64,000 nucleotides of DNA from Aliiroseovarius marinus. Lineage in GTDB: Bacteria; Pseudomonadota; Alphaproteobacteria; Rhodobacterales; Rhodobacteraceae. Made by a program: the position numbers and the translations under genes. How positions within the stretch are numbered: position 1 is the first letter of the stretch; each line of letters opens with the position of its first letter. Shown here piece by piece: positions 3,101 through 28,208 of the stretch. The notes under the pieces were generated by a model. That model worked only from the letters and a program-made list of their open reading frames with translations. It made no database searches and was not told the origin of the DNA. Location: NCBI RefSeq assembly GCF_004360145.1, contig NZ_SAIT01000003.1:186001-250000 (forward strand), in the 5' to 3' direction.

Positions 3101-4147
<1,047 letters not shown>

Positions 4148-4299
4148 TCAGGGCCATAAAAGTGATCTGAAACTTCCTGCCACGGGTCCGCTCAGTTCAC
4201 AAGTCCGCAATTTTCCGTTCTCCCGGCTGTTCCCGCTGGCACAGGCCCCGCCCCAACGCTAGGGTGAAACGCATTAGGACCACCAGCAGGGAACCAAAG

Positions 4300-4824
4300 T
4301 TGGATATTTACGCCACCCTTTTCGAAATCATTGATATGCGGTCTTTTTCCAACCTGTGGTATTGGATTGGGCTTGCCGTGGCGTGGTCGATGGCCAGCTA
4401 TTGGGTGGTGGGCGTGCCCTATGACATGATACAGCGTGCTGGGCGTGTGGAAGGCGAGGCACAAGAGGACCTCGAGACCATTGTGCGCGTGAACTGCAAC
4501 CGCATCACTTCGCTGTCCGACCAATCTGGAATGTCCCTGATTGCCGTTGCGTCGGCCGTGCTGACGTCCCTGATCATACTTGGGTTTTGGTATGGCATAG
4601 AGTTCGCCCAAGCCGTGTTTCTGTTGATGTTTCCGATGGTGATTGTCGGACTGCTCTCTGCACGAACAGCTATTACGATCCAAAGCCAAGCACTTGAAGG
4701 AGAGGCCTTGCGCCGTTACCTGCTGCGGCATCGTCTGATGGTGCAATTGATTGGAATGCTTGCCATCCTGATCACCGCGCTTTGGGGTATCAACCACAAC
4801 CTTTCCAATGGCGTACTGAGGTAA
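4300..4824 (+). CDS. Small multi-pass membrane protein (Rhodobacteraceae family annotated as SufBCD-associated)
   Basis: About 174 residues. After a short DIYATLFEIIDMRSFSN head come a first transmembrane helix (WYWIGLAVAWSMASYWVVG), a charged middle segment and two or three further helices. From memory, related Rhodobacteraceae proteins begin with a similar ELIDMRSFSNLWYW block and carry the label 'component of SufBCD complex'; I know of no firm functional proof and no suf genes are nearby. I chose the TTG at 4300 because it is preceded by AGCAGGGA at good spacing and gives the family N-terminus. A GTG at 4264 would add 12 non-conserved residues. Confidence 0.65.
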   Translation: MDIYATLFEIIDMRSFSNLWYWIGLAVAWSMASYWVVGVPYDMIQRAGRVEGEAQEDLETIVRVNCNRITSLSDQSGMSLIAVASAVLTSLIILGFWYGIEFAQAVFLLMFPMVIVGLLSARTAITIQSQALEGEALRRYLLRHRLMVQLIGMLAILITALWGINHNLSNGVLR

Positions 4825-4877
4825 TCCTGACCGACCCGCCCCTTGCGTGGCCCTAACTGCACGGATACATCCGCCGC

Positions 4878-7800
4878 ATGGACAAGCTTATTCTTTCTGG
4901 TGCCCCCGAGGGCTTTGACGCGACCCTTCTGGTGAAGGAACTCGACCGGTCTGGCGGGCCGGTTGTTCATGTGGCGCGGGATGAAAAGCGGCTGGCGGCG
5001 ATGCAGGCGGCACTTGGCTTTTTTGCGCCGGACGTGACCTGTGTCACGTTCCCCGGCTGGGATTGTCTTCCCTTTGATCGCGTGTCCCCCAATGCGGACG
5101 TGTCTGCGGCGCGGATGGCGACCTTGGCCGGGTTGGCGACGGGGCAGATCAAGGGGCGGTTTGTCCTTCTGACCACGCTGAACGCCGTCACCCAACGCTT
5201 GCCTGCGCGGGCTACTCTGGCCGAGGCCAGCTTTGTCGCCAGTGTGGACAACCTGTTGGACGTCGATGCCCTGCGCGCGTTTCTAGTGCGCATGGGCTTT
5301 TCGCAATCCCCAACCGTGATGGAGCCGGGGGATTTTGCCGTTCGTGGTGGGATCATCGACATTTTCCCACCGGGCGAAAGCGGCCCCGTACGTCTGGACC
5401 TATTCGGAGACGTGTTGGATGGGGTTCGCCGCTTTGATCCGGCCACCCAACGCACGACGGAAAGCCTAAAGGGGATCGAGCTTGCCCCGGTGTCCGAGGT
5501 CATTCTGGACGAGGCCGCGATCACGCGGTTTCGGCAGAACTATCGCATTGAATTCGGCGCCGCTGGGTCGGACGATCCGCTTTACGAGGCCGTGTCTGCT
5601 GGGCGCAAGCATCAGGGTATCGAACATTGGCTGCCGTTCTTCCATGAACAACTGGAAACGCTATTTGACTATCTGCCCGATGCCTCGGTGATGTTGGATG
5701 ACGGGTTGGATCCCGCCCGCCTTGCCCGGTGGGAGGCGATTACCGACCAGTATGAGACCCGCAAGATTGCGATGAACGCGAAGAACCGGATGGACAGCGT
5801 CTATAAGCCTTGTCCGCCGGATCTGCTGTATCTGGATGATCCCGCGTGGGCGACCGCGCTTGATGGGCGTCGTGTGGTCCAGTTGACGGCATTGCCGCAG
5901 CCCACAGGTGCGGGTGTGGTCGATGGCGGCGGACGGATCGGGCGCAACTTCTCTCCGGAACGCCAGCAAGAGAACATTAACCTTTTCAAGTCTCTGGCGG
6001 ATCATATTGAAGCGAAAAATGAAACGTCTGTCATCGTTGCGTCCTATTCGGAAGGCGCACGGGAGCGTTTGCAGGGATTGTTGGCCGATGAAGGTGTGAT
6101 CACAAGTCAAGTGATCACAAATTTCCGCGATGTTCCGGATGCTGCGGGTGGTATCTATCTGGCGGTCTGGGCGCTGGAGCACGGGTTTGAGGGGCCGGGG
6201 CTAACGGTGATCTCGGAGCAAGACGTATTGGGCGACCGCTTGATCCGCGCACCCAAGCGCAAACGCCGCGCCGAGAACTTCCTGACCGAGGCGCAAAGCC
6301 TGTCTCCGGGGGATCTGATCGTTCACGTTGACCACGGGGTCGGCAAATATAACGGGTTGGAAACCGTGACTGCGATGGGTGCGCCGCATGAATGCCTCGC
6401 CTTGGAATATGCGGGCGGGGATCGCCTGTTTGTGCCCGTCGAAAACATCGAGCTTCTGTCCAAGTTTGGCCAAGACACCGGCCTTCTGGACAAGCTGGGC
6501 GGCGGCGCGTGGCAGGCTAAGAAAGCCAAGCTGAAAGAGCGCATCCGCGAGATCGCGGACAAGCTGATCCGGCTTGCTGCCGAACGCGAGCTGCGCAAGG
6601 CGCCGACGCTGGAAGCCCCGCATCACGCGTGGGAAGAGTTCTCGGCCCGGTTCCCGTATCAGGAAACCGACGATCAGCTGTCCGCCATTGAAGATGTGAT
6701 CGAGGATCTGGCCTCGGGCCGTCCGATGGATCGTCTGGTTTGCGGCGATGTGGGCTTTGGCAAGACCGAGGTGGCTATGCGTGCCGCATTCGTCGCCGCT
6801 ATGTCGGGCCAGCAAGTCGCGGTGATCGCGCCGACCACGTTGTTGGCGCGCCAGCACTTTAAAAGCTTCTCGGAACGCTTCCGGGGCTTTCCCATCAATG
6901 TCGGGCAACTGTCGCGCTTTGTGGGGCAGGCCGAGGCGAAACGGACCCGCGAAGGCATGTCGCGCGGTACGATGGATATCGTTGTCGGCACGCACGCGCT
7001 GTTGGCAAAAGATGTGCGGTTCGAGAACCTCGGCCTCTTGATTGTCGACGAAGAACAGCGCTTTGGGGTGAACCACAAAGAACGGCTGAAGGAGCTGCGT
7101 TCCGACGTGCATGTCCTGACGCTCTCGGCCACGCCAATCCCGCGTACGCTGCAGATGTCCTTGTCCGGGGTGCGCGATCTGTCGATCATTGGCACGCCGC
7201 CCGTCGACCGCCTGTCGATCCGCACCTATGTCTCGGAATTCGACGGCGTCACCATCCGCGAGGCGCTGCTGCGTGAACATTATCGTGGGGGGCAGAGCTT
7301 CTACGTGGTGCCGCGCGTCAAGGATATTCCAGACATCGAGGCCTTCCTGAAGGACCACGTTCCAGAAGTCAGTTTCGTCACAGCCCACGGTCAAATGGCG
7401 GCGGGCGAGTTGGATGACCGCATGAACGCCTTCTATGACGGAAAATATGATGTGCTGCTGGCCACGACGATTGTCGAAAGCGGCATCGACATACCGACCG
7501 CGAACACGATGGTCGTGCACCGCGCGGATATGTTCGGGCTGGCGCAGCTTTATCAGATCCGGGGCAGGGTGGGGCGCTCGAAAACCCGCGCTTATGCCTA
7601 TCTGACCACGAAACCGCGCGTGCCCCTGACGCAGACCGCGCAAAAGCGCCTGCGCGTGCTGGGGTCTCTGGATACGCTGGGGGCTGGGTTCACACTGGCC
7701 TCGCAGGATCTGGACATTCGCGGTGCCGGCAATCTGGTGGGTGAAGAGCAATCCGGCCAAATGCGTGAAGTGGGCTATGAGCTTTACCAACAGATGCTAG

Positions 7801-8333
7801 AAGAGGCGATTGCCAAGATTAAGTCGGGTCAGCTGGAGGGTCTGTCGGACGCGGACAGCAGTTGGGCACCGCAGATCAACCTTGGCGTTCCTGTATTGAT
7901 CCCAGATACTTACGTCCCTGATCTTGATGTGCGTCTAGGCCTCTATCGTCGCCTGTCATCACTGTCCAAGAAGGTCGAGCTGGAAGGCTTTGCCGCCGAG
8001 CTGATCGACCGCTTCGGCCCACTTCCGAAAGAGGTGAACACCCTGATGCTGATTGTGCGCATCAAAGGCATGTGTAAGCGTGCGGGCATTGCCAAACTGG
8101 ATGGCGGGCCGAAAGGGGCGACGATTCAGTTCCACAACGACAAGTTTGCCTCGCCCGTTGGATTGGTCGAGTTTATTCAGGCGCAGAACGGTCTGGCGAA
8201 GGTGCGCGACAACAAAATTGTTGTGCGACGCGACTGGCGCAAAACCTCGGACAAGATCCGCGGGGCCTTTGCGATTGCGCAGGATCTGGCGATGAAGGTG
8301 AAAGAGGCCAAGGCACAAGAAAAGAAAGCCTAA
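4878..8333 (+). CDS. mfd: Transcription-repair coupling factor
   Basis: An ATP-dependent translocase that removes RNA polymerase stalled at DNA lesions and recruits UvrA. The full-length 1151 residues show a UvrB-like N-terminal module, the RNA-polymerase-interacting CarD-like/Tudor segment (LIVHVDHGVGKYNGLE, about residue 480), and RecG-like helicase motifs: Walker A GDVGFGKTE, Walker B DEEQRFG, motif III SATPIPRTL and motif VI QIRGRVGRS. A TRCF C-terminal domain follows. It starts 54 bases after the membrane-protein gene and may be cotranscribed with it. Confidence 0.98.
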   Translation: MDKLILSGAPEGFDATLLVKELDRSGGPVVHVARDEKRLAAMQAALGFFAPDVTCVTFPGWDCLPFDRVSPNADVSAARMATLAGLATGQIKGRFVLLTTLNAVTQRLPARATLAEASFVASVDNLLDVDALRAFLVRMGFSQSPTVMEPGDFAVRGGIIDIFPPGESGPVRLDLFGDVLDGVRRFDPATQRTTESLKGIELAPVSEVILDEAAITRFRQNYRIEFGAAGSDDPLYEAVSAGRKHQGIEHWLPFFHEQLETLFDYLPDASVMLDDGLDPARLARWEAITDQYETRKIAMNAKNRMDSVYKPCPPDLLYLDDPAWATALDGRRVVQLTALPQPTGAGVVDGGGRIGRNFSPERQQENINLFKSLADHIEAKNETSVIVASYSEGARERLQGLLADEGVITSQVITNFRDVPDAAGGIYLAVWALEHGFEGPGLTVISEQDVLGDRLIRAPKRKRRAENFLTEAQSLSPGDLIVHVDHGVGKYNGLETVTAMGAPHECLALEYAGGDRLFVPVENIELLSKFGQDTGLLDKLGGGAWQAKKAKLKERIREIADKLIRLAAERELRKAPTLEAPHHAWEEFSARFPYQETDDQLSAIEDVIEDLASGRPMDRLVCGDVGFGKTEVAMRAAFVAAMSGQQVAVIAPTTLLARQHFKSFSERFRGFPINVGQLSRFVGQAEAKRTREGMSRGTMDIVVGTHALLAKDVRFENLGLLIVDEEQRFGVNHKERLKELRSDVHVLTLSATPIPRTLQMSLSGVRDLSIIGTPPVDRLSIRTYVSEFDGVTIREALLREHYRGGQSFYVVPRVKDIPDIEAFLKDHVPEVSFVTAHGQMAAGELDDRMNAFYDGKYDVLLATTIVESGIDIPTANTMVVHRADMFGLAQLYQIRGRVGRSKTRAYAYLTTKPRVPLTQTAQKRLRVLGSLDTLGAGFTLASQDLDIRGAGNLVGEEQSGQMREVGYELYQQMLEEAIAKIKSGQLEGLSDADSSWAPQINLGVPVLIPDTYVPDLDVRLGLYRRLSSLSKKVELEGFAAELIDRFGPLPKEVNTLMLIVRIKGMCKRAGIAKLDGGPKGATIQFHNDKFASPVGLVEFIQAQNGLAKVRDNKIVVRRDWRKTSDKIRGAFAIAQDLAMKVKEAKAQEKKA

Positions 8334-8400
8334 TCCGATCAGGATTTGCGCCCCAAGGCGGCCAGATGTGCAACACCTTGCAAACACCGTGTTTCGCGCT

Positions 8401-8429
8401 TTGACAAGGCGGTACTGACCCCTTATCCA
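8401..8429 (+). promoter_or_regulatory. Candidate sigma-70 promoter for bamA
   Basis: A perfect -35 TTGACA at 8401-8406 is followed after exactly 17 bases by TATCCA (8424-8429, 4 of 6 to TATAAT), 36 bases before the bamA start. It lies in the 131-base gap after mfd. Read by eye only; transcript ends would be needed to prove it. Confidence 0.55.
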
Positions 8430-8464
8430 CGTGGGCACTGGGATGTCTAAAGAAAGATAGAAAC

Positions 8465-10819
8465 ATGGCATTTTTCGAGGGGTCTGGCAGCGCAGCCGGG
8501 ACAACCGCATTTAAAGCGCTGAGAGGACTGGCCAGCAGCAGTGGATTGGCAATTTTGCTAGCAATTTCAGGGGGGGCTGCCACCCTTCCGATGCCCGCTC
8601 AGGCGCAGACATATTCTTTCACTAAGGTCGAGATCGAAGGCACGCAGCGGATTGAGGCTGCAACCATCCTGTCCTATCTGGGAATCGCTCAGGGCGAGAC
8701 GGTCAGCGCCGCACAGCTGAATGACGGCTACCAGCGCCTTGTCGCGTCCGGTCTGTTCGAAGACGTCAAAGTCATCCCGCGTGGCAATGTTCTGGTCGTA
8801 CAGGTCCGTGAATATCCGACCATCAACGTCGTCTCGGTCGAAGGGAACCGCCGGGTCAAGGATGAGGTCTTCGATGACCTGCTGAAATCACGCTCGCGTC
8901 AGGTATTCAGCCCTGCAACCGCCGAGCAAGACGTGCAGACCATTATCGAGGTCTATCAAGCACAAGGCCGCTTGGCCGCCCGTGTAACCCCAAGAATTAT
9001 TCGTCGTGCCAACAACCGCGTGGATCTGGTTTTCGAAGTGATCGAGGGCAAGAACACCGAAGTTGAACGTCTGTCCTTCGTGGGCAACCGCAAGTTCTCG
9101 GATGCGCGTCTGCGTCGGGTTCTGGAAACCAAGCAAGCCGGCATCCTACGTGCGCTGATCCAGCGCGACTCCTACGTTCCGGAACGGATCGAGTTTGATA
9201 AGCAGGTTCTGAAGGACTTCTATCAGTCGCGCGGCTATGTGGATTTCAAAACCACTGGCGTAACCAGCGAGTTCTCGCGCGAGCGCGACGCCTTCTTCAT
9301 CACCTTCAAGGTTCAGGAAGGCCAGCAATTCCGCTTTGGCGAGATCACGACCGTCTCTGAAGTCGAGGGCGTGGACACCGCAGATTTCCATGCGGCGCAG
9401 AACATCAAATCCGGGAACGTCTTTAGCCCAGCTCAGCTGGACAATGCGATCGCCCGGATGGAGCGTCTTGCCATCCAAAAAGGTCTGGATTTCATTCGCG
9501 TCGACCCGCGTGTCACCCGTGACGAACGCAACCAGCTTCTGAACATCGAACTGGTTCTGGTCCGTGGCCCGCGCATCATTGTTGAACGCATCGATATTGA
9601 GGGCAACGCCACCACACTGGACCGCGTTGTGCGCGATCAGTTCCGCGTGGTCGAAGGCGACCCGTTCAACCCGCGTGAAATTCGCGAGGCAACCGAACGC
9701 GTGCGCGCCCTTGGGTTCTTTGCCGACGCGCAAGTGGACGCGCGCCCCGGCTCTGCCCCCGATCAGGTTGTTATCGACGTCGATGTCGAAGAAGCACCAA
9801 CCGGCTCGCTGAGCCTTGGTGGTGTCTACAGCCTTGAAAACGGCTTTGGTCTGAACCTGGCCTTCACGGAACGCAACTTCCTGGGGCGAGGTCAGTATAT
9901 CTCGGCAAGTTTCCAGAACACCGATGACAGCCTGAGCTTCTCGTTCAAGTTTGCAGAACCGGCCTTCTTGGGCCGTGATCTGGAGTTCGGTTTCGAGACC
10001 TATTACCAGTCCACCGACCAAGCGTCGTCGTTCTACAACACGAACTCGCTGGCGTTCCGTCCATCCATCGCGTTCCCGATCAACGAATATTCGCGCCTTG
10101 GTCTGCGCGTCTATGCAGACGGGACGGAAGTGACTGACGTTAACGCGGACAGCTCGGACTTGCTGAAGGCGGACGAAGCTCGTGGTCGCCAGATTGGTGG
10201 CGGTGTCGGCTTCTCGTACAGCTATGACACGCGCCGCACCGGTTTGGACCCGAACCGTGGGTACTTGTTCCAACTGGACGGTGATATCGGCGGTATCGGT
10301 GCGGACTATCAATATGCCCGAGCCACAGCGCTGGCACAGGCGCTGACCAAGGTCTGGAATGACGAGGTCACGCTCTCGGCGACGGTTGAAGGTGGTTTCC
10401 TGACCAGCCTGAACGGCGCAAGCTCGCGCGTGACGGACCGTTTCCGCATGGGCCCGTCCAAGCTGCGTGGCTTCGCGACCAACGGTCTTGGTCCCCGTGA
10501 CCTGACCGCAACGAACCAAGACACGCTGGGCGGCAACATGTTTGCCGTGGCCCGTCTTGAGGCGCAGTTCCCGCTGGGTCTGCCGGAAGAATACGGTATC
10601 ACCGGCGGTCTGTTTGTTGACGCTGGTACGCTGTGGGGTCTGGATGACACCCTTGGTGGGGCCATCGATGATAGCGCGCAACTGCGGTCGTCCATCGGCG
10701 CGTCGATCTTCTGGGATACCCCGATCGGTCCGCTGCGCTTCAACTACTCCAAGGTTCTGGCCAAGGAAAGCTATGACGAAGAAAACAACTTCGAGCTCAC
10801 GATTTCGGCTCAGTTCTGA
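8465..10819 (+). CDS. bamA: Outer-membrane protein assembly factor BamA
   Basis: The Omp85-family core of the BAM machine that inserts beta-barrel proteins in the outer membrane. 784 residues: a signal peptide ending PAQAQ (about residue 48), five POTRA repeats, then a 16-strand barrel. The conserved loop-6 RGF is present in SKLRGFATNGLGPRD, and the protein ends in Phe, as expected of an outer-membrane barrel. The N-terminal leader is rather long. It heads the bamA-ompH-fabZ-lpxA-lpxI-lpxB run but lacks the usual rseP gene upstream; rseP is at 31.4 kb on the other strand. A promoter-like TTGACA/TATCCA pair lies upstream. Confidence 0.97.
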   Translation: MAFFEGSGSAAGTTAFKALRGLASSSGLAILLAISGGAATLPMPAQAQTYSFTKVEIEGTQRIEAATILSYLGIAQGETVSAAQLNDGYQRLVASGLFEDVKVIPRGNVLVVQVREYPTINVVSVEGNRRVKDEVFDDLLKSRSRQVFSPATAEQDVQTIIEVYQAQGRLAARVTPRIIRRANNRVDLVFEVIEGKNTEVERLSFVGNRKFSDARLRRVLETKQAGILRALIQRDSYVPERIEFDKQVLKDFYQSRGYVDFKTTGVTSEFSRERDAFFITFKVQEGQQFRFGEITTVSEVEGVDTADFHAAQNIKSGNVFSPAQLDNAIARMERLAIQKGLDFIRVDPRVTRDERNQLLNIELVLVRGPRIIVERIDIEGNATTLDRVVRDQFRVVEGDPFNPREIREATERVRALGFFADAQVDARPGSAPDQVVIDVDVEEAPTGSLSLGGVYSLENGFGLNLAFTERNFLGRGQYISASFQNTDDSLSFSFKFAEPAFLGRDLEFGFETYYQSTDQASSFYNTNSLAFRPSIAFPINEYSRLGLRVYADGTEVTDVNADSSDLLKADEARGRQIGGGVGFSYSYDTRRTGLDPNRGYLFQLDGDIGGIGADYQYARATALAQALTKVWNDEVTLSATVEGGFLTSLNGASSRVTDRFRMGPSKLRGFATNGLGPRDLTATNQDTLGGNMFAVARLEAQFPLGLPEEYGITGGLFVDAGTLWGLDDTLGGAIDDSAQLRSSIGASIFWDTPIGPLRFNYSKVLAKESYDEENNFELTISAQF

Positions 10820-10825
10820 TCACAG

Positions 10826-10856
10826 AGTGCCTCGGATAATCCGGGGCACTTTTTTT
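10826..10856 (+). terminator. Hairpin plus T-run between bamA and ompH, over the ompH start
   Basis: A 10-bp stem (10826-10835 with 10841-10850, one G-T pair), a 5-base loop ATAAT, then six more Ts: a textbook intrinsic terminator 7 bases after the bamA stop. The GTG at 10827, the only reasonable ompH start, is inside the 5' arm, so the structure may attenuate both transcription and translation of ompH. Confidence 0.75.
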
Positions 10857-11492
10857 CGGAACCTGATCGGCGGTGTTGCTTTGGCTTCAGCAATGTGTGG
10901 CGTGATCCTGCCGTCAGCCGTACAGGCGCAGCAAGTAGGCGTGCAGTCCGTCTCGCAGATCGTGACGATCGATCGCCAAAGGTTGTTTTCAGAAACGGCC
11001 TATGGTCAGCGTGTTGTGGCAACGGTCGAGGTTGAACGTACGCGTCTGGCGCAAGAAACCCGCGAAGCGGAAGCTGCGCTGGCGCAGGAAGAAAAGCTGC
11101 TGACCGAGCAGCGCAGCTCTCTGGATCCGACCTCTTTCCGTGTTTTGGCGGACGCTTTTGATAAAAAGGTCAATGAGTTGCGCGCCGAAGGTCAAGTGCG
11201 CGAGCAAGAGTTCGTGCGTGTTTTGGAACGCGAGCAGACTGCCTTCTTCGAACGTATCGGTCCGATCTTGGGCCGCATGGTGCGCGAGCTGGGGGCCGTC
11301 GTCATCCTTGACCGACGCGCTATTTTGCTTGCGACGCAGAACATCGACATCACGGACATGGCCATTCGCCGGATCGATCAGGAACTTGGGGACGGTCTAT
11401 CGACCCCCAACGCGCCGACGGACGATTCAGGTGATGAGGCCCCCGCTGACGCGCCAGAAAGCCCCGCGCCGGAAGGTGCCAGCAACAACTGA
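10827..11492 (+). CDS. OmpH/Skp family periplasmic chaperone
   Basis: A periplasmic chaperone that holds unfolded outer-membrane proteins for BamA. 221 residues: a signal peptide with a basic n-region (MPRIIRGTFFRN), a hydrophobic core and an AVQA cleavage site. The start of the mature domain (VSQIVTIDRQRLF) and the long charged helix-rich arm (residues about 70-130, many Glu/Arg) are typical of Skp. An acidic Pro-rich tail ends the protein. The start is a GTG because no other start codon gives a signal peptide. It lies 7 bases past the bamA stop with a weak ribosome site, so reinitiation is likely. The start is embedded in a terminator-like hairpin. Confidence 0.85.
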   Translation: MPRIIRGTFFRNLIGGVALASAMCGVILPSAVQAQQVGVQSVSQIVTIDRQRLFSETAYGQRVVATVEVERTRLAQETREAEAALAQEEKLLTEQRSSLDPTSFRVLADAFDKKVNELRAEGQVREQEFVRVLEREQTAFFERIGPILGRMVRELGAVVILDRRAILLATQNIDITDMAIRRIDQELGDGLSTPNAPTDDSGDEAPADAPESPAPEGASNN

Positions 11493-11579
11493 ATCGGATT
11501 GTTTCGCCTTCGCAGGGCTGATAATCAATGATGTCAGACAATTGGCGTGAAAAGCGCCGGGACAGAAGGAAAAACAGAC

Positions 11580-12044
11580 ATGGTCGACGTGCCCAGCACA
11601 GCTGATATTCAGCTTATTCAGGAATGTATCCCCCACCGCTATCCTTTCCTTCTGGTGGACAAGGTTGAAGACATCCGCGCAGGTGAATTTGCCCGTGGCA
11701 TCAAGATGGTCACGATGAACGAGCCGCATTTCCAAGGCCACTTCCCGGGTCTTCCGATCATGCCGGGCGTGACCATTATCGAAGCGATGGCTCAGACTTC
11801 GGCGGTGATGGTCTCGCTTTCGTTGGATCTGGTTGGCTCGGGTGCCGTGGTCTATTTCATGGGCATCGACACCGCGAAGTTCCGTCGCAAAGTGGTTCCG
11901 GGCGACCGTCTGGAGCTGGAAGTGACCACCGTGCGCGGTGGCGCAAAAGTCTGGAAGTTTGACGGCGTGGCCAAAGTGGACGGCGAGATCGCCTGTACCG
12001 CCACGTTCATGGCGATGATCGACGTCACCGGCGGAAAGGGCTGA
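11580..12044 (+). CDS. fabZ: 3-hydroxyacyl-[acyl-carrier-protein] dehydratase FabZ
   Basis: Dehydrates beta-hydroxyacyl-ACP in fatty acid elongation and balances acyl supply for lipid A. A 154-residue hot-dog fold with the substrate motif [11 protein letters not shown] and the catalytic stretch [20 protein letters not shown], read in two parts with His and Glu conserved. The ATG at 11580 is preceded by AGAAGGA; a GTG 33 bases upstream in frame adds nothing conserved. It sits between ompH and lpxA (2-base gap), as in most alphaproteobacteria, but no lpxD is present here. Confidence 0.97.
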
Positions 12045-22649: not shown

Positions 22650-23052
22650 GTCGTCTTCCTTGTGCGAACACTGTTTTATCAGCATTATTTCGGACATTGT
22701 CGAGAGAATTGAGGAAACGAAACAATCGGTTTTAGGATAGTCGCTGGATTGCAATATTAACATAATATGGATTATGCGCATTAATGCGTATCCGATCTGA
22801 GTAATACCATGGGCGTGCTATTGTGTTCAAACGCTACCCTCACAATGGATACCAAGCCCCTGATTTGTTTAGTTACCGCCGAAAACTGTGTTCAACACAG
22901 GCATATGGTCCAAGTCGAGCTGTCGACGCCGGAAGTATCCAAGCGTTGCACAATCCGGTACTCCGAAATGCGCTAAGAACTACGAGCGATCGTGGATGCA
23001 TCGGCAGAACGCGACCCCTACCCCAGAAAACTCGGCCCAAAATCGTGTTTCG
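22650..23052. other. Non-coding stretch between aroQ and the MFS gene
   Basis: About 400 bases. The aroQ-proximal half is AT-rich and contains the palindrome at 22774-22791. The half nearer the MFS gene has short open frames (up to 77 codons) without ribosome sites or recognisable motifs. It could be decayed coding sequence; nothing is supportable as a gene. Confidence 0.5.
22774..22791. promoter_or_regulatory. 18-bp imperfect palindrome upstream of aroQ-luxR
   Basis: Two 9-base arms, ATGCGCATT and AATGCGTAT, with 8 of 9 complementary positions and no spacer. It lies 125 bases before the aroQ start in AT-rich DNA. Size and symmetry suit a LuxR-family dimer site, but the sequence is not a canonical lux box. 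Confidence 0.4.
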
Positions 23053-24237
23053 CTAAGCAATGCTTTTATCGGTGTGACGCCCAGAGATCCCGCGCAGTAG
23101 CGCCATAGTGGCTTCGATCGCGGCCAGTACTGCTACCAGCGCCAGCAGCACGGTTGATCCAAGTTCAACAATTACCCAGCCGGCGATCAATGGGAACCCG
23201 AATATCCCGATAAAATAGGTCAGCGCGAAAAATTGGAGCGTTTGCGGAAGAATGTCTGGATTTGCATCATTGGCCGCCATCGCTGCCAAGATCGGATAGC
23301 TGACCCCGTACCCGATCCCAAACAGGAACGCGACCATCAGATAAACTGTCTGGCTGTCGCTAAGCCCGAGGAACAGCAAGACGGATCCGAACATCACGTA
23401 TTGTAGCATGGCGATGGTCAGATATGGATGACGCCCGCCCTTGTACCGTGCAAGCACAATGCGGAACAGGATAACGGTGACTGTGTAAGCTAAGAAATAG
23501 TTGGCGTAATCCAACCCGCGTTCGTCTGCGAAAACGGTTTGGAAGTTATTCATGCCGGCGAAAACGGACGCCCCTATACAAACCATGATCACAGGCAAAC
23601 GCGCGCGTGAGCGTAGGATTGCGAGAACCACATTGGGCGAAAGTGATGAGCGTGTTTCTTGTCCCATGTCGCGCGTATGACGGCGTACGGCCTTGGACAA
23701 AACCCCAAACAATCCGCCCGAAATCAGGCATAGGGTGGCCGTTACAAAGAAGGCGTCCTGCACCCCCAGGCCCGCCCGTTCCATCATGGACGCCATCACC
23801 GGAGACAGACCAAACCCCGCCATCACAGCGACAGAAAGCATGGCGAAATATCTAACACGCGCGTCTGATTCTACCAGCCGCGTCAACACAATGGGTGGCA
23901 GCGCATAGGTCAGCCCCCAGCCTGCCCCAAGGGCCAGGCTGGCATAGACAAGCAGACCGCCGACGCGTGTGGAAAACCCGTAAGACGCCAGGGCTGTCGC
24001 GATCAGAACTCCGGCCAAAGACAGCGTTTGCATTCGGCCCAAGCGATCTGACAGATGCCCAGCGAAATACACCGCGATGATCGTGGCGATTGCCGTGATG
24101 AACAGCATGGCCCCAACCACTTTCTCATTTGCCCCGAAGGTTTCAAATAGGCGCGGAAGCATGAATGTCAGGCCATAGACACCCGCCTGAAGGAAATTCG
24201 CAAGGAAGAACAAAGTGAATAGTGTCAGGCGGTTCAT
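23053..24237 (-). CDS. Major facilitator superfamily transporter
   Basis: A 394-residue inner-membrane protein with 12 predicted helices in two six-helix bundles. The MFS loop 2-3 motif is visible as GHLSDRLGRMQTLSLAG, and a long cytoplasmic loop with RRHTRDMGQETRSS lies in the middle. Closest in style to drug/metabolite proton antiporters of the DHA or YfcJ type, but the substrate is unknown. It diverges from a MocR-type regulator gene with 128 bases between, and a TTGG/CCAA inverted repeat lies in that gap, so control by that regulator is likely. Confidence 0.85.
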   Translation of the reverse strand: MNRLTLFTLFFLANFLQAGVYGLTFMLPRLFETFGANEKVVGAMLFITAIATIIAVYFAGHLSDRLGRMQTLSLAGVLIATALASYGFSTRVGGLLVYASLALGAGWGLTYALPPIVLTRLVESDARVRYFAMLSVAVMAGFGLSPVMASMMERAGLGVQDAFFVTATLCLISGGLFGVLSKAVRRHTRDMGQETRSSLSPNVVLAILRSRARLPVIMVCIGASVFAGMNNFQTVFADERGLDYANYFLAYTVTVILFRIVLARYKGGRHPYLTIAMLQYVMFGSVLLFLGLSDSQTVYLMVAFLFGIGYGVSYPILAAMAANDANPDILPQTLQFFALTYFIGIFGFPLIAGWVIVELGSTVLLALVAVLAAIEATMALLRGISGRHTDKSIA

Positions 24238-24316
24238 TCGGCGTCCATTTCAGGGTCAGGCGATCTGCGGATCAAAGCCGCGTGGTTTCATGTGTGTGAT
24301 TGCCGGATTGCCACAG

Positions 24317-24342
24317 TATTGGTTCATTATTAATGTCCAATA
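24317..24342. promoter_or_regulatory. Inverted repeat TATTGG-N14-CCAATA between MFS and mocR-type genes
   Basis: Perfect 6-base arms at 24317-24322 and 24337-24342 around an AT-rich centre (ATTATTAAT). It is 24 bases before the regulator start and about 80 before the MFS start, a good place for one operator to serve both directions. Confidence 0.45.
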
Positions 24343-24365
24343 GATGAAATTATGAGCATACCAAA

Positions 24366-25796
24366 ATGACACAGCTACCTTGGCTTGCCCTGTCGATCGA
24401 GCGCGGCTCGAAGACACCTATTTTCGAACAGATTAGCACAGCGATCCGTACGCAAGTGGTCTCGGGCGATTTGACGGCTGGGACAAAGATGCCCCCTACC
24501 CGCGCATTCGCCACCGAGCTTGGCGTTTCCCGCTCGACCGTCGTCACAGCCTATGAACAGCTTGTCGCCGAAGGCTATCTGCGCAGTCTCAGAGGTTCTG
24601 GATACACGGTTTGTGCCTTGGGGGAAGTCGAATTGTCACGGACCGCGCCCTACGATGGCGTAACATCCGAACCCGTCGATATACGCGCTCCGGTTCCGTT
24701 TGAAACTGGCATGCCAGATATGCGTTTGTTTCCATATCGCCAGTGGGCAAAGGCCGTGGCGCGTATATGTCGAACAAATCCACAGGCGATGTTGGTCGGC
24801 GGGGACGCATTCGGGAATTTCGAGCTGCGCAAATCAATTGCCGCGCATCTTTCAGAGTGGCGCGGGATCGATGCCTCGGCGCATCAGATCATGGTGACGG
24901 CTGGGTCGATGGACGCTCTAGAGATCTGCATGCGCAGTGTCGCCAGCACGGGCGATGTGATCGGTGTCGAGGATCCCGGCTATCCCCCATTGCATCATTT
25001 TGCGCAGGCACAGGGGTTGGTGCCGCATTATCTGAAAATCGACGATGACGGCGCGACATTGCCGTCCAGCACCACCCTTCCCGATCTGGTCGTCCTGACC
25101 CCCTCCCATCAATACCCGCTGGGCGGTGCGATGACGCCCAATCGACGGCTTGAATTCATTAACTGGGCCAACGCGCATGGTGCCTGGATCATCGAAGATG
25201 ATTATGACAGCGAGTTTCGCTATGCGGGACGGCCGATCCCTGCCCTTGCGGGTTTCGATCAACTTAGCCGCACGATCTATGTGGGAAGCTTTTCCAAGAT
25301 CTTCTCGAACGCTCTGCGTTTGGGCTATGTCGTCGTCCCCGAGGCGCTGATCGACCGTTTCCAAGATACAGTGAAGCGTTTTGGCCAAAAGGCGAGCTAT
25401 ATGCCCCAGCAAGCGCTGGCCGAGTTCATGTCCTTGGGCGAGTTCTATCGCCATCTGCGCCGTGTTCGCAGATCCTATGGCGATCGCCGCAAGTTGTTAT
25501 TGGATCGGTTGGAGCGCGAGTTTTCACAGTTTGGGTTCTTCAAGGACCATCAAGCGGGCATGCAAATCGTGTTTCACCTGAACCCGGGATTTCGGGATGA
25601 AGACATCGCCAGCTTAGCACGGCAGAGAGGTCTTATCATACGTCCGCTCACGTCTATGTTCGCCAGAGATAGCGGAGCAAATGGGCTGATGCTTGGCTTC
25701 TGCGCTTACACCGAAGACGAGCTGCCCCCGGCGATTGATGTCCTGAAGGTCTGCTTCGAAGAACTCGCGGCGGGGCGTTCACAAGGCGGCCACTAG
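24366..25796 (+). CDS. MocR-family regulator (GntR domain fused to aminotransferase-like domain)
   Basis: 476 residues. The N-terminal winged-helix domain of GntR type (about 15-80: IFEQISTAIRTQVVSGDL, PPTRAFATELGVSRSTVV read in pieces) is joined to a fold-type I aminotransferase-like domain. The PLP-binding Lys is in YVGSFSKIFS, and ITAGS-like and DDYDSEFRY motifs are also present. Such proteins sense PLP-linked amines or amino acids (PdxR, GabR, TauR), but which ligand is unclear here. Divergent from the MFS gene. Its stop overlaps the stop of the ACP gene by 4 bases tail to tail. Confidence 0.92.
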   Translation: MTQLPWLALSIERGSKTPIFEQISTAIRTQVVSGDLTAGTKMPPTRAFATELGVSRSTVVTAYEQLVAEGYLRSLRGSGYTVCALGEVELSRTAPYDGVTSEPVDIRAPVPFETGMPDMRLFPYRQWAKAVARICRTNPQAMLVGGDAFGNFELRKSIAAHLSEWRGIDASAHQIMVTAGSMDALEICMRSVASTGDVIGVEDPGYPPLHHFAQAQGLVPHYLKIDDDGATLPSSTTLPDLVVLTPSHQYPLGGAMTPNRRLEFINWANAHGAWIIEDDYDSEFRYAGRPIPALAGFDQLSRTIYVGSFSKIFSNALRLGYVVVPEALIDRFQDTVKRFGQKASYMPQQALAEFMSLGEFYRHLRRVRRSYGDRRKLLLDRLEREFSQFGFFKDHQAGMQIVFHLNPGFRDEDIASLARQRGLIIRPLTSMFARDSGANGLMLGFCAYTEDELPPAIDVLKVCFEELAAGRSQGGH

Positions 25797-26047
25797 GCTG
25801 CGATTTTACTGTCGATATGCGCCTGAAGGGCGTTCAGCATTGCGTGATTTTGGAAGTCGTCTTCGTTCAGTTCGATATCAAACGCCTCTTCCAGATGCAT
25901 CATGAACTCGAACTGCACCAGACTGTCTGCGTTTACTTCCAGAAGGTTTACATCGCCCTCTCCAAGCAGCTTCGGGGCCAGCAATGGATCGTCCAGTGCG
26001 CCTGTCGCTTGATGCAGGGCTTCAATAATTCTCTGACGTGTGGTCAT
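25793..26047 (-). CDS. Acyl carrier protein, dedicated
   Basis: An 84-residue acidic four-helix carrier protein. The phosphopantetheine site is Ser42 in VNADSLVQFEFMMHLEEAF, followed by helix III acidic residues. It differs from housekeeping AcpP (which has the canonical DSLDTVELVM), so it is a specialised carrier. Its ATG overlaps the P450-like stop (TGATG), making it the last gene of a three-gene operon. Role inferred: to hold an acyl or aminoacyl intermediate for the two upstream enzymes. No adenylation or ketosynthase gene is present in the window to load it. Confidence 0.88.
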   Translation of the reverse strand: MTTRQRIIEALHQATGALDDPLLAPKLLGEGDVNLLEVNADSLVQFEFMMHLEEAFDIELNEDDFQNHAMLNALQAHIDSKIAA

Positions 26048-27033
26048 CAGGAAATCTCCAATAAAACGGTGTCCGGAATGCGGAAAAGCGTGTCCTGCTT
26101 TTCATCGATTTGCGTGATTACGGCCTTTCGGTCAATCCCTGACACGACATGTGTAACGGCCTGCCAGTATTGCATGGACACTGGCCCGCCCAAACAGACA
26201 TGACGCCCGAGCCCAAAAATAAGCTTCCGGTCCGCATCTGGGCTTGGCGCGTCAAAGATGTTCAGCATGACACTGACGTCATGCCCCTTGGGAATACTCT
26301 GTTCGGCAAAGCTGACATCGTCACGCGCGGTCCGACGAATAAAGGGGACACCGGTGTGTGAAAACAGGTCGGGAAAGGGCATCTGCGCGAACGTCTTGCC
26401 GGGATGATCCATGATCATCTGCAACATGCTAAGCGCAGCGGACCCCATGGTGGAGTCATGCCCCATTGCCACAAGGGTTTTCTTAAACTGAATTTCGCGT
26501 GGCGAAGCGTCTGGAAACTGCGCCCGCAACGCGTCGTCCAAATCTTTCAACTGCTTTTCCAGCCTGCGCCGTTGCCGGATGCCAATTCCATCCGTCAGGA
26601 CCAACGACAATTCGCTGATGTCCAGTTTAGAGATGTCTACCCCGATGAGGTTGGTGAACAGAATGTCGACACTTGGCTTGATGACATCTTGCATCAGCTC
26701 GACCGGTCCGGTCTGGCCGAGACGGTCAAACTTGGATACCGCTTTCCGCAGGACCGTCCCGCGCTCTTTGCTGGTTTGGGCGATCATCTTGGCGATCTCG
26801 GCGCGTGTCTGCGCATGCGCCTCGCCCTCTTGAAAGACCGGAAGGTGGTCCAGCAACTCGGCGATCTGCGAGAAGTCGAGTTTGAGGTGCTCGGCAAGCC
26901 GGCGATAGTTCTCGGCGCCATTGTCCGAGGCAACCAACGCCGGGCAGCGCAACACCTCGCGTGATCCATCGACATGAATGTCTTTTCGAAAGGCTTTTTC
27001 CCGCGCCGGGGCGAAATAGTCTTCGATGCTCAT
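26047..27033 (-). CDS. Reduced cytochrome P450-like protein lacking the ExxR motif
   Basis: 328 residues, against roughly 400 for bacterial P450s. Present: a BC-region His73/Arg77 (EAHAQTR), an I-helix MGHDST at 190-195 resembling AGHETT, the RRTARDDV strand (233-240) and the heme-thiolate loop FGLGRHVCLGG with Cys280. Missing by alignment: the K-helix ExxR (the place reads FPDLFS, 220-225) and the meander, since only about 20 residues separate the following IPKG strand from the heme loop. The ATG at 27033 overlaps the stop of the hydrolase gene (ATGA). It probably binds heme; monooxygenase, peroxygenase or non-catalytic roles are all open. Confidence 0.8.
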   Translation of the reverse strand: MSIEDYFAPAREKAFRKDIHVDGSREVLRCPALVASDNGAENYRRLAEHLKLDFSQIAELLDHLPVFQEGEAHAQTRAEIAKMIAQTSKERGTVLRKAVSKFDRLGQTGPVELMQDVIKPSVDILFTNLIGVDISKLDISELSLVLTDGIGIRQRRRLEKQLKDLDDALRAQFPDASPREIQFKKTLVAMGHDSTMGSAALSMLQMIMDHPGKTFAQMPFPDLFSHTGVPFIRRTARDDVSFAEQSIPKGHDVSVMLNIFDAPSPDADRKLIFGLGRHVCLGGPVSMQYWQAVTHVVSGIDRKAVITQIDEKQDTLFRIPDTVLLEIS

Positions 27034-28049
27034 TTGCCGTCCCCCTTTGGACCGTCGCATTTGTACACGTATCCGCCCTGCGGTCGAGCAGACCAATTGG
27101 GCTGATCTGCCATTGACGCTGGGAAATCCTCGGCCAGCAGGCCCGGAAGGAACGCATCCAGATACCCGCGCGCCCAAAGTGGCCCCAGAACGGCATGTTC
27201 CATGACGGGCAGCACTTCAACAACCGCGCCACCTGTCAGTTCAGCCGCGGTCAAGCAGGCGTTCCTATAGCGCGGACTTTCGTTGGAATAGACAAACGTG
27301 AACTCTGGATGGTCAGCCCCCAAACAGGCACAGATGGGGTCAAAAGCCGGGACCGCACGCACCTGATTTCGGAGGATCCGCAAGGTATCATCTGGAAACG
27401 ATCCCCCGAAAGAGATTGCCTTGTCCGCACCCGCCATCAAGGCAAGGCGGACCGCAGGAAAGCCACCCCCGCTTGTGCCGAGTGTGATGAGCTTCCGATA
27501 GCGTTTCTTCGTGCGGAATTCCTGAATATATTCTGCGACAGAGTTTAGGCTGTCGAGTTGTTCAGAAACACCTTTACGGTAGTGGTTCCGATGAGGATCG
27601 TTCAGAACAAGAATGTCAAATTGCCTGTCGTCAATGCGTTGAAGAAACGCAGGCACCGGCATGCCCGGCCGCCGCGCATATCCGGCACAGACGACCAGAA
27701 GGCTTTTTTCATTGAAGCGTCCAGGGCCTTGATACAGCGTTCCACCTTGCGCGAGCTTGCGGCGTACAAACCGTAGCACCCGCGATCCGGTCGCGATCTC
27801 ATGCGCTGCTGGCTGTTTCAAAACGCGTTCATACAGCGTCGGGGACTGTTTACGCAGCGCGGTCAGGGCCGCAAGATACTCGCGCGGGGCAACCCAGTTC
27901 TCGAGCGCGTTCAAAGAAAGCTTGATCTTGTTGTCTGATGCCTCAGCAAGCGCCGGATCAATCAGCCCTGCGGCGCGCCCTCGGCCGGTAAGTCTTCTGG
28001 CCGCCCGTCGAAGCGTTGAAATAAGCGAAGAGCCGGCATGGTGGGGCAT
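27030..28049 (-). CDS. Alpha/beta-hydrolase-like protein, first gene of P450/ACP operon
   Basis: 339 residues. After an N-terminal helical part of about 120 residues comes a core with KSLLVVCAGYARRPGMP, a nucleophile elbow GTSGGGFPAV (G-x-S-x-G) and a late His in VMEHAVLGPL. Together these fit a serine hydrolase or thioesterase/acyltransferase. I start at ATG 28049: an open frame reaches a TTG at 28163, but that part has poor third-position GC, no ribosome site, and contains a 7+7 inverted repeat that looks like an operator. Coupled by ATGA to the P450-like gene. Could release or transfer the product carried by the ACP (inference). Confidence 0.68.
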   Translation of the reverse strand: MPHHAGSSLISTLRRAARRLTGRGRAAGLIDPALAEASDNKIKLSLNALENWVAPREYLAALTALRKQSPTLYERVLKQPAAHEIATGSRVLRFVRRKLAQGGTLYQGPGRFNEKSLLVVCAGYARRPGMPVPAFLQRIDDRQFDILVLNDPHRNHYRKGVSEQLDSLNSVAEYIQEFRTKKRYRKLITLGTSGGGFPAVRLALMAGADKAISFGGSFPDDTLRILRNQVRAVPAFDPICACLGADHPEFTFVYSNESPRYRNACLTAAELTGGAVVEVLPVMEHAVLGPLWARGYLDAFLPGLLAEDFPASMADQPNWSARPQGGYVYKCDGPKGDGK

Positions 28050-28145
28050 ATATCGGGCAAGCACCTGAATGACGAAATTCTGTGTCGCGGTTGTACCGGA
28101 ATGGCCTGCAGTAAGCAATCGCGCAAGCCTTTGAAAACAGGCTAA

Positions 28146-28166
28146 TCCTTGGAAGGTTGCCAAGGA
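28146..28166. promoter_or_regulatory. Inverted repeat TCCTTGG-N7-CCAAGGA before the hydrolase operon
   Basis: Perfect 7-base arms (28146-28152 and 28160-28166) with a 7-base spacer, between the katG terminator and the operon's ATG 97 bases away. The TTGG/CCAA halves recall the repeat at 24317-24342, although the spacing differs (7 versus 14 bases between TTGG and CCAA). Confidence 0.45.
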
Positions 28167-28184
28167 CGGCTATCTGAAAATAGA

Positions 28185-28208
28185 AAAGGGGCAGTCGCCT
28201 GCCCCTTT
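28185..28208. terminator. Terminator of katG
   Basis: A 10-bp stem AAAGGGGCAG/CTGCCCCTTT with loop TCGC. T-rich tracts follow on both strands; it lies 29 bases past the katG stop. Confidence 0.75.

What the first reader, a model, noticed from the sequence alone, without database searches (positions are those of the whole stretch)
25793..28049. Coupled hydrolase / P450-like / acyl-carrier-protein operon with no assembly-line partner
Seen: three genes with ATGA and TGATG overlaps, so translation is tightly coupled. Products: a GTSGGG-elbow alpha/beta-hydrolase-like protein, a reduced P450-like protein and a carrier protein with Ser42 in ADSL. Known: carrier proteins paired with P450s are used in some natural-product pathways, where the P450 acts on an ACP-bound chain. 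Inference: a compact enzyme set that oxidises or handles an acyl or aminoacyl group on a private ACP and then releases it. No ketosynthase or adenylation gene is nearby, so loading must come from elsewhere.
Basis: partly seen in the sequence, partly recalled or inferred. Interest (0 to 1): 0.75.

Follow-up and report, generated by a model that had tools for sequence, protein, structure and literature searches.

The report
Mini-P450 cassette with private acyl carrier
Three tightly overlapping genes make a small P450-type oxidising enzyme that lacks a motif nearly all P450s have, a carrier protein that probably holds its substrate, and a hydrolase that may release the product; the set recurs in related bacteria and looks like a portable chemical-modification kit.

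The parts
27030..28049 (-). alpha/beta-hydrolase-fold protein, 339 aa, nucleophile Ser193 (codon 27471-27473), His285 (codon 27195-27197), DPICAC motif 237-242
26047..27033 (-). short P450-like protein, 328 aa, heme-ligand Cys280 (codon 26194-26196), no ExxR at the K-helix columns; His73/Arg77, Arg234, His278 kept
25793..26047 (-). free-standing acyl carrier protein, 84 aa, Ser42 in ADSL (codon 25922-25924)
   Evidence: PF00550 28.4 bits; Ser invariant in 8 of 8 aligned ACPs
25767..28183 (.). stretch absent between katG and the MocR-type gene in one congener (G866): the trio as a discrete unit
   Evidence: in L081 the two flanks lie 61 bases apart; no DNA match inside this stretch in any of the 20 other genomes of the genus searched
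28185..28208 (.). terminator-like hairpin between katG and the trio, found on both strands
   Evidence: 10 pairs, 6 G-C; 5 terminator-like sites found in the region against 3.2 (sd 2.1) in shuffles, so weak evidence by count

Best explanation
A self-contained acyl-modification cassette that moves between genomes. Proposed order of events: the ACP is primed with phosphopantetheine on Ser42 (inferred) and loaded with an acyl, probably fatty acyl, chain by an enzyme encoded elsewhere (inferred; some relatives have an AMP ligase beside the ACP). The P450, which lacks the ExxR pair, binds the acyl-ACP and oxidises the chain with its heme-thiolate centre, using general redox partners of the cell (inferred). 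The hydrolase then cleaves the thioester, or transfers the oxidised acyl group (inferred). Shown: gene coupling, conservation of the P450-ACP pair, recurrent hydrolase partner, P450 homology and predicted fold with heme-site residues kept and ExxR absent, and absence of the trio as a block in one congener.
For: ACP gene adjacent to the short P450 in 13 of 13 loci; family hydrolase in 9 of 12 single-domain loci; a PF00975 thioesterase (53.4 bits) in a tenth. Distances among the P450, ACP and hydrolase of 9 trio loci correlate (Spearman 0.80, 0.81, 0.83; 6, 4 and 0 of 5000 permutations reach them). P450 homology: profile against three canonical P450s, probability 97.9%, E 6e-13; 205 distinct PDB sequences at E <= 0.01, including OxyB and BioI. 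Heme Cys, C-helix His and Arg, and cysteine-loop His invariant in 11 of 11. Structure: rank 1 by both Foldseek and VIA is BioI with acyl-ACP, tied within 1 Z with CalO2. Loading enzymes in relatives: AMP ligase, ACP and hydrolase with 4-base overlaps in G509 and G412 (AMP-binding confirmed by Pfam for G509 only, 137 bits); in G187 a ligase (NCBIfam: first an NRPS/PKS model, 313.7 bits over its N-terminal part, then a fatty-acid-AMP ligase model, 261.1 bits; both below cut-off), ACP, double P450 and NodU-like carbamoyltransferase. None of the 3 canonical P450 genes of this genome has a carrier match within about 20 kb on its contig.
Against: No loading enzyme beside the trio in the window; the nearest AMP-binding match on the contig is over 110 kb away. 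Absence of ExxR could mean no catalysis. Structure ranks within 1 Z are ties and do not show substrate, many other listed P450s act on free substrates (recalled), and the cysteine loop is modelled with low confidence. The window hydrolase has Tyr261 where 11 of 12 aligned members have Asp, the likely catalytic acid, so its triad is uncertain. In 3 of 12 loci the third gene is not this hydrolase, and the hydrolase also occurs without the P450. Only one PPTase-domain match was found in this genome. The distance correlation could partly reflect species relatedness.
Confidence: 0.56

Rival explanations
1. Non-catalytic P450 relative: the protein is a scaffold or activator that holds the acyl-ACP or the hydrolase, as P450-derived glycosyltransferase activators help their enzymes, and oxidises nothing.
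For: ExxR absent at the K-helix columns in 11 of 11 and only a three-residue turn predicted between 210 and 230; the tandem relative's best NCBIfam match is the P450-derived glycosyltransferase activator family (82.8 bits, cut-off 343).
Against: The heme-ligand Cys and neighbouring heme-contact residues are invariant in 11 of 11, which a scaffold would not need. That known activators lack the Cys is recalled, not from a call. Neighbouring genes were not annotated systematically, so a glycosyltransferase partner is not excluded.
Confidence: 0.2
2. Offline amino-acid hydroxylation cassette as in vancomycin-type glycopeptide pathways: the ACP carries an aminoacyl group, the P450 hydroxylates it, the hydrolase frees the product.
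For: Same three-part logic as bhp/bpsD/oxyD (PMC10687080, passages) and as Qui15, which acts only on PCP-loaded tryptophan (PMC3578932, abstract); best sequence matches in PDB are OxyA entries (names). The genome has NRPS-like frames.
Against: No adenylation domain fused to or beside the ACP in the window; the carrier reads DSL followed by an acidic stretch, ACP-like (my reading); the one relative whose ligase was typed has a fatty-acyl-AMP-ligase-like one, though its first match is an NRPS/PKS model.
Confidence: 0.14
3. A biotin side route: BioI-like cleavage of long acyl-ACP to pimeloyl-ACP, with the hydrolase as a BioH-like esterase.
For: BioI is the top structural match and cleaves acyl-ACP to pimeloyl-ACP (PMC7645780, passages).
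Against: The 4 same-genus genomes of one sample lack the P450, so it is not a core vitamin gene; the paper reports that the alpha-proteobacteria it studied use BioZ. Biotin genes near the trio were not searched for systematically.
Confidence: 0.04
4. A decaying remnant with no present function.
For: One relative (L022) has a broken P450 frame.
Against: Intact P450 and ACP frames in the window and in 10 of the 11 other single-domain loci, with invariant active-site residues although P450 identity to L017 is only 20-54%.
Confidence: 0.03

Closest known systems
bhp / bpsD / oxyD (rpsE in ristomycin) cassette for beta-hydroxytyrosine in vancomycin-type glycopeptide pathways
   Same: A three-gene cassette that makes a building block offline (paper passages); that the parts are a hydrolase, a carrier and a P450 acting on the carrier-bound substrate is recalled.
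   Different: There the carrier is fused to an adenylation domain (recalled) and the P450 is a canonical one (recalled); here the ACP stands alone, the P450 lacks ExxR, and the hydrolase has no Pfam match above cut-off.
P450 BioI (CYP107H, name recalled) with acyl-ACP
   Same: Best structural match by two programs; P450 that acts on acyl-ACP.
   Different: 14-16% identity; BioI chains of about 380 residues; different gene context.
CYP157 family
   Same: P450s without the ExxR pair (PMC3599690, abstract and passages).
   Different: CYP157 keeps the K-helix Glu (EVLW, EQSLW) and is linked to conservons; here the Arg is lost in 11 of 11 and the Glu in 10 of 11 (kept in L019), and the model has no full helix there.
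Fatty acyl-AMP ligase / free-standing ACP loading pairs
   Same: Free-standing ACP beside an AMP ligase, seen in relatives G187, G509, G412.
   Different: The window trio has no such ligase beside it.

Membership tests
Cytochrome P450 superfamily (PF00067) | sequence homology to P450s | tested here: met
   family profile vs 3 canonical P450s E 6e-13; 205 PDB sequences at E <= 0.01. The window protein alone does not reach Pfam's cut-off; 3 of 11 members match PF00067 at E <= 1
Cytochrome P450 superfamily (PF00067) | heme-ligand cysteine loop GxGxHxCxG | tested here: met
   Cys and the loop Gly and His invariant in 11 of 11
Cytochrome P450 superfamily (PF00067) | ExxR in the K-helix | tested here: not met
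   0 of 11 at the columns aligned to it. ExxR strings do occur elsewhere in 9 of the 11 sequences, as short motifs will. CYP157 shows the motif is not absolute
Cytochrome P450 superfamily (PF00067) | P450 fold | tested here: met
Cytochrome P450 superfamily (PF00067) | binds heme and shows a 450 nm CO band | not testable with these tools
   bench assay
Acyl carrier proteins (PF00550) | phosphopantetheine-site Ser in a PP-binding domain | tested here: met
   28.4 bits over cut-off 20.8; Ser invariant in 8 of 8
Acyl carrier proteins (PF00550) | is phosphopantetheinylated and acylated | not testable with these tools
   mass spectrometry
alpha/beta hydrolases | fold with nucleophile elbow and catalytic His | tested here: met
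alpha/beta hydrolases | catalytic acid | tested here: inconclusive
   Asp in 11 of 12 at the likely column, Tyr261 in the window protein
Glycopeptide-type bhp/bpsD/oxyD cassette | adenylation domain with the carrier (recalled) | tested here: not met
   84-aa stand-alone ACP; no AMP-binding match near it in this genome
BioI (CYP107H) | sequence family identity over 40% | tested here: not met
   14-16% identity over the structural alignment; the 40% rule as given in PMC3599690

The most novel reading that the evidence does not exclude
A catalytically active P450 family that dispenses with the K-helix and its ExxR pair, stabilised instead by its dedicated acyl-ACP partner, so that the P450 is functional only as a complex with its own carrier protein; with exchangeable release enzymes it forms a transferable acyl-oxidation module found in this family and at least one other family of its class.
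Probability: 0.38. Interest if true: 0.78.

Novelty: new variant of a known kind. Interest (0 to 1): 0.62.

Why it matters
If active, these would be unusually short P450s and would show that a heme-thiolate oxygenase can work without the K-helix glutamate-arginine pair, a long-used hallmark for recognising P450s. The single-domain members tested fall below the curated cut-offs of Pfam (11 scanned, 3 matching PF00067 even at E <= 1) and NCBIfam (3 scanned), so such enzymes and their small pathways are likely to be missed in annotation. A three-gene unit that oxidises an ACP-bound chain and releases it would also be a compact tool for tailoring acyl chains.

Tried and rejected
Genome-collection scan with the window P450 alone found no relative; with a 4-member alignment it found 5 loci, one of them new (Frigidibacter sp. 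ROC022). Plasmid records gave no match for the three family P450s tried. Two weak matches (L014, L015) proved to be ordinary long P450s and were dropped. L022 was left out of the alignments A1, A8 and A9 because its P450 frame is broken; L130 because it is a tandem form. Of the 11 other genomes with a hydrolase match, 5 have the trio; of the 6 weaker ones only G210 was looked at and it has no short P450. The hydrolase profile matched 15 of 337 genomes of a class sample at E <= 0.001; I fetched 8 of its 18 places, the strongest ones, and saw no short P450 beside them. Family hydrolases or short P450s near three other carrier genes of this genome: none. A need for the neighbouring MocR-type regulator: a congener has it beside katG without the trio. 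The third genes of L022 and L069 look to me like acyltransferases, but Pfam gives nothing; they are weakly alike (E 2e-5) and I leave them unassigned. No paper describing this trio was seen in the listings of ten searches of the held open-access library, a limited library and narrow terms. In the structure tables, families not listed are not excluded.
Full report
What is there. The window's minus strand carries, in order of transcription, a hydrolase-like gene (28049-27030), a P450-like gene (27033-26047) and an ACP gene (26047-25793); overlaps are 4 and 1 bases. The upstream neighbour is a peroxidase-family gene that I call katG (PF00141, 232 bits; the name is recalled) with a terminator-like hairpin at 28185-28208 after it. 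The convergent neighbour is a MocR/PdxR-type regulator whose end overlaps the ACP end by 4 bases.

The trio is a recurrent unit. A scan of 248 same-family genomes with the P450-like protein gave matches in 10: the window's own, 7 short relatives and 2 ordinary P450s that I dropped. A separate scan of the same sample with the hydrolase gave 12 of 248, and in 5 of the 11 genomes other than the window's the hit lies beside the short P450. Two more short P450s came from an order sample (3 of 341 genomes with the window's own), one from a class sample (2 of 318 with the own) and one from the named collection. Of these 12 loci, 12 have an ACP gene next to the P450 and 9 the family hydrolase. In 7 of these 9 the order is P450-ACP-hydrolase, in the window hydrolase-P450-ACP, in L067 ACP-P450-hydrolase. 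In the other three the third gene is a PF00975 thioesterase (53.4 bits) or one of two weakly alike unassigned proteins. A thirteenth, tandem-P450 locus also has an ACP and no family hydrolase. Pairwise distances of P450, ACP and hydrolase in the 9 trio loci correlate at 0.80-0.83.

It comes and goes as a block. In 20 other genomes of the genus the DNA of the trio has no match, while the katG stretch matches in 16 of 20. In one congener (G866) katG and the regulator are 61 bases apart, so the trio is missing exactly between them; in four others window 22.78-28.18 kb (transporter, regulator, trio) is replaced by 195-225 bases (five congeners compared). At protein level the 4 same-genus genomes listed have no match. 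With the 11-member profile, 9 of 247 same-family genomes match at E <= 1e-8, including the own and the tandem form; in a phylum-wide sample only the window's own of 229. This patchiness fits horizontal movement, though loss is possible in single cases. No repeats were found at the ends and no plasmid record holds a match to three family P450s.

Loading. This genome has one PPTase-domain match, 8 carrier domains including ours, and 18 AMP-binding matches, none near the trio. Relatives help. In two genomes of one genus an AMP ligase, an ACP and this hydrolase overlap by 4 bases each, without a P450 beside them (Pfam check on one). In G187 a ligase, a 753-aa protein with two P450-like domains (26% alike), an ACP and a NodU-like carbamoyltransferase lie together. 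The ligase's first NCBIfam match is an NRPS/PKS model (313.7 bits, N-terminal part), the next a fatty-acid-AMP ligase model (261.1 bits), all below cut-off. There both P450 domains keep the heme Cys, and near the K-helix position a Glu is seen but no Arg (my reading of the sequence); this tandem protein does pass Pfam's P450 cut-off (50.1 bits). A chain that is loaded, hydroxylated and then carbamoylated would make sense of that set; this is inference.

Mechanism and confidence. That the genes work as one unit: about 0.93. That the P450's substrate is bound to the ACP: about 0.7. That it is a working heme enzyme: about 0.65. That the cargo is a fatty-acyl-like chain: about 0.55. These are judgements, not computed. 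Known parallels are the three-gene beta-hydroxytyrosine cassette of glycopeptide producers (PMC10687080, passages), Qui15, which hydroxylates only carrier-loaded tryptophan (PMC3578932, abstract), and BioI (PMC7645780, passages). ExxR-less P450s exist in CYP157 (PMC3599690, abstract and passages). On checking, the residue at the likely acid column was corrected (Tyr), the K-helix statement was softened to a three-residue turn, and the ligase matches of G187 were told in full; I lowered the best explanation from 0.57 to 0.56, raised the aminoacyl rival from 0.13 to 0.14, and set the novel reading at 0.38 instead of 0.40 for that reason.

Verdict. A real, conserved, transferable module around a P450 family that standard libraries score below their cut-offs; the logic is known, the P450 form and the free-standing gene set are a new variant.

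Noticed in passing
L130 (G187), 3960-12015, minus strand: 753-aa protein with two P450-like domains in tandem, beside an ACP, an acyl-AMP-ligase-like gene, a NodU-like carbamoyltransferase and a 742-aa TPR protein with a weak VexE-like C-terminus (55 bits): a small acyl pathway that I could not match to a known one.
   Followed up: partly
L058 6702-9414 and L059 8397-11121: AMP ligase, ACP and a hydrolase of this family with 4-base overlaps, no P450 beside them.
   Followed up: partly
L061 8376-10380 and L064 7202-9247: ACP beside a more distant relative of the hydrolase, with a further unassigned protein of 220-250 aa upstream in both.
   Followed up: no
L063 7032-9532: TPR protein with a C-terminal domain like this hydrolase, beside a gene with a weak radical-SAM match (22.9 bits, below cut-off).
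   Followed up: no
L067 8160-11289: ACP, short P450, distant hydrolase and a weakly sulfotransferase-like gene (15 bits, below cut-off) in a row.
   Followed up: no
window 22783-28184: About 5.4 kb (MFS transporter, MocR-type regulator, trio) replaced by 195-225 bases in four congeners.
   Followed up: partly
L022 8839-9877: Short P450 split over two frames, ACP after it intact: a broken copy or a sequencing error.
   Followed up: no
hydrolase family, window 27324-27341 and relatives: DxxCxC motif in 8 of 9 hydrolases linked to the short P450 and 0 of 3 unlinked ones: a possible mark of P450-linked members, role unknown.
   Followed up: partly
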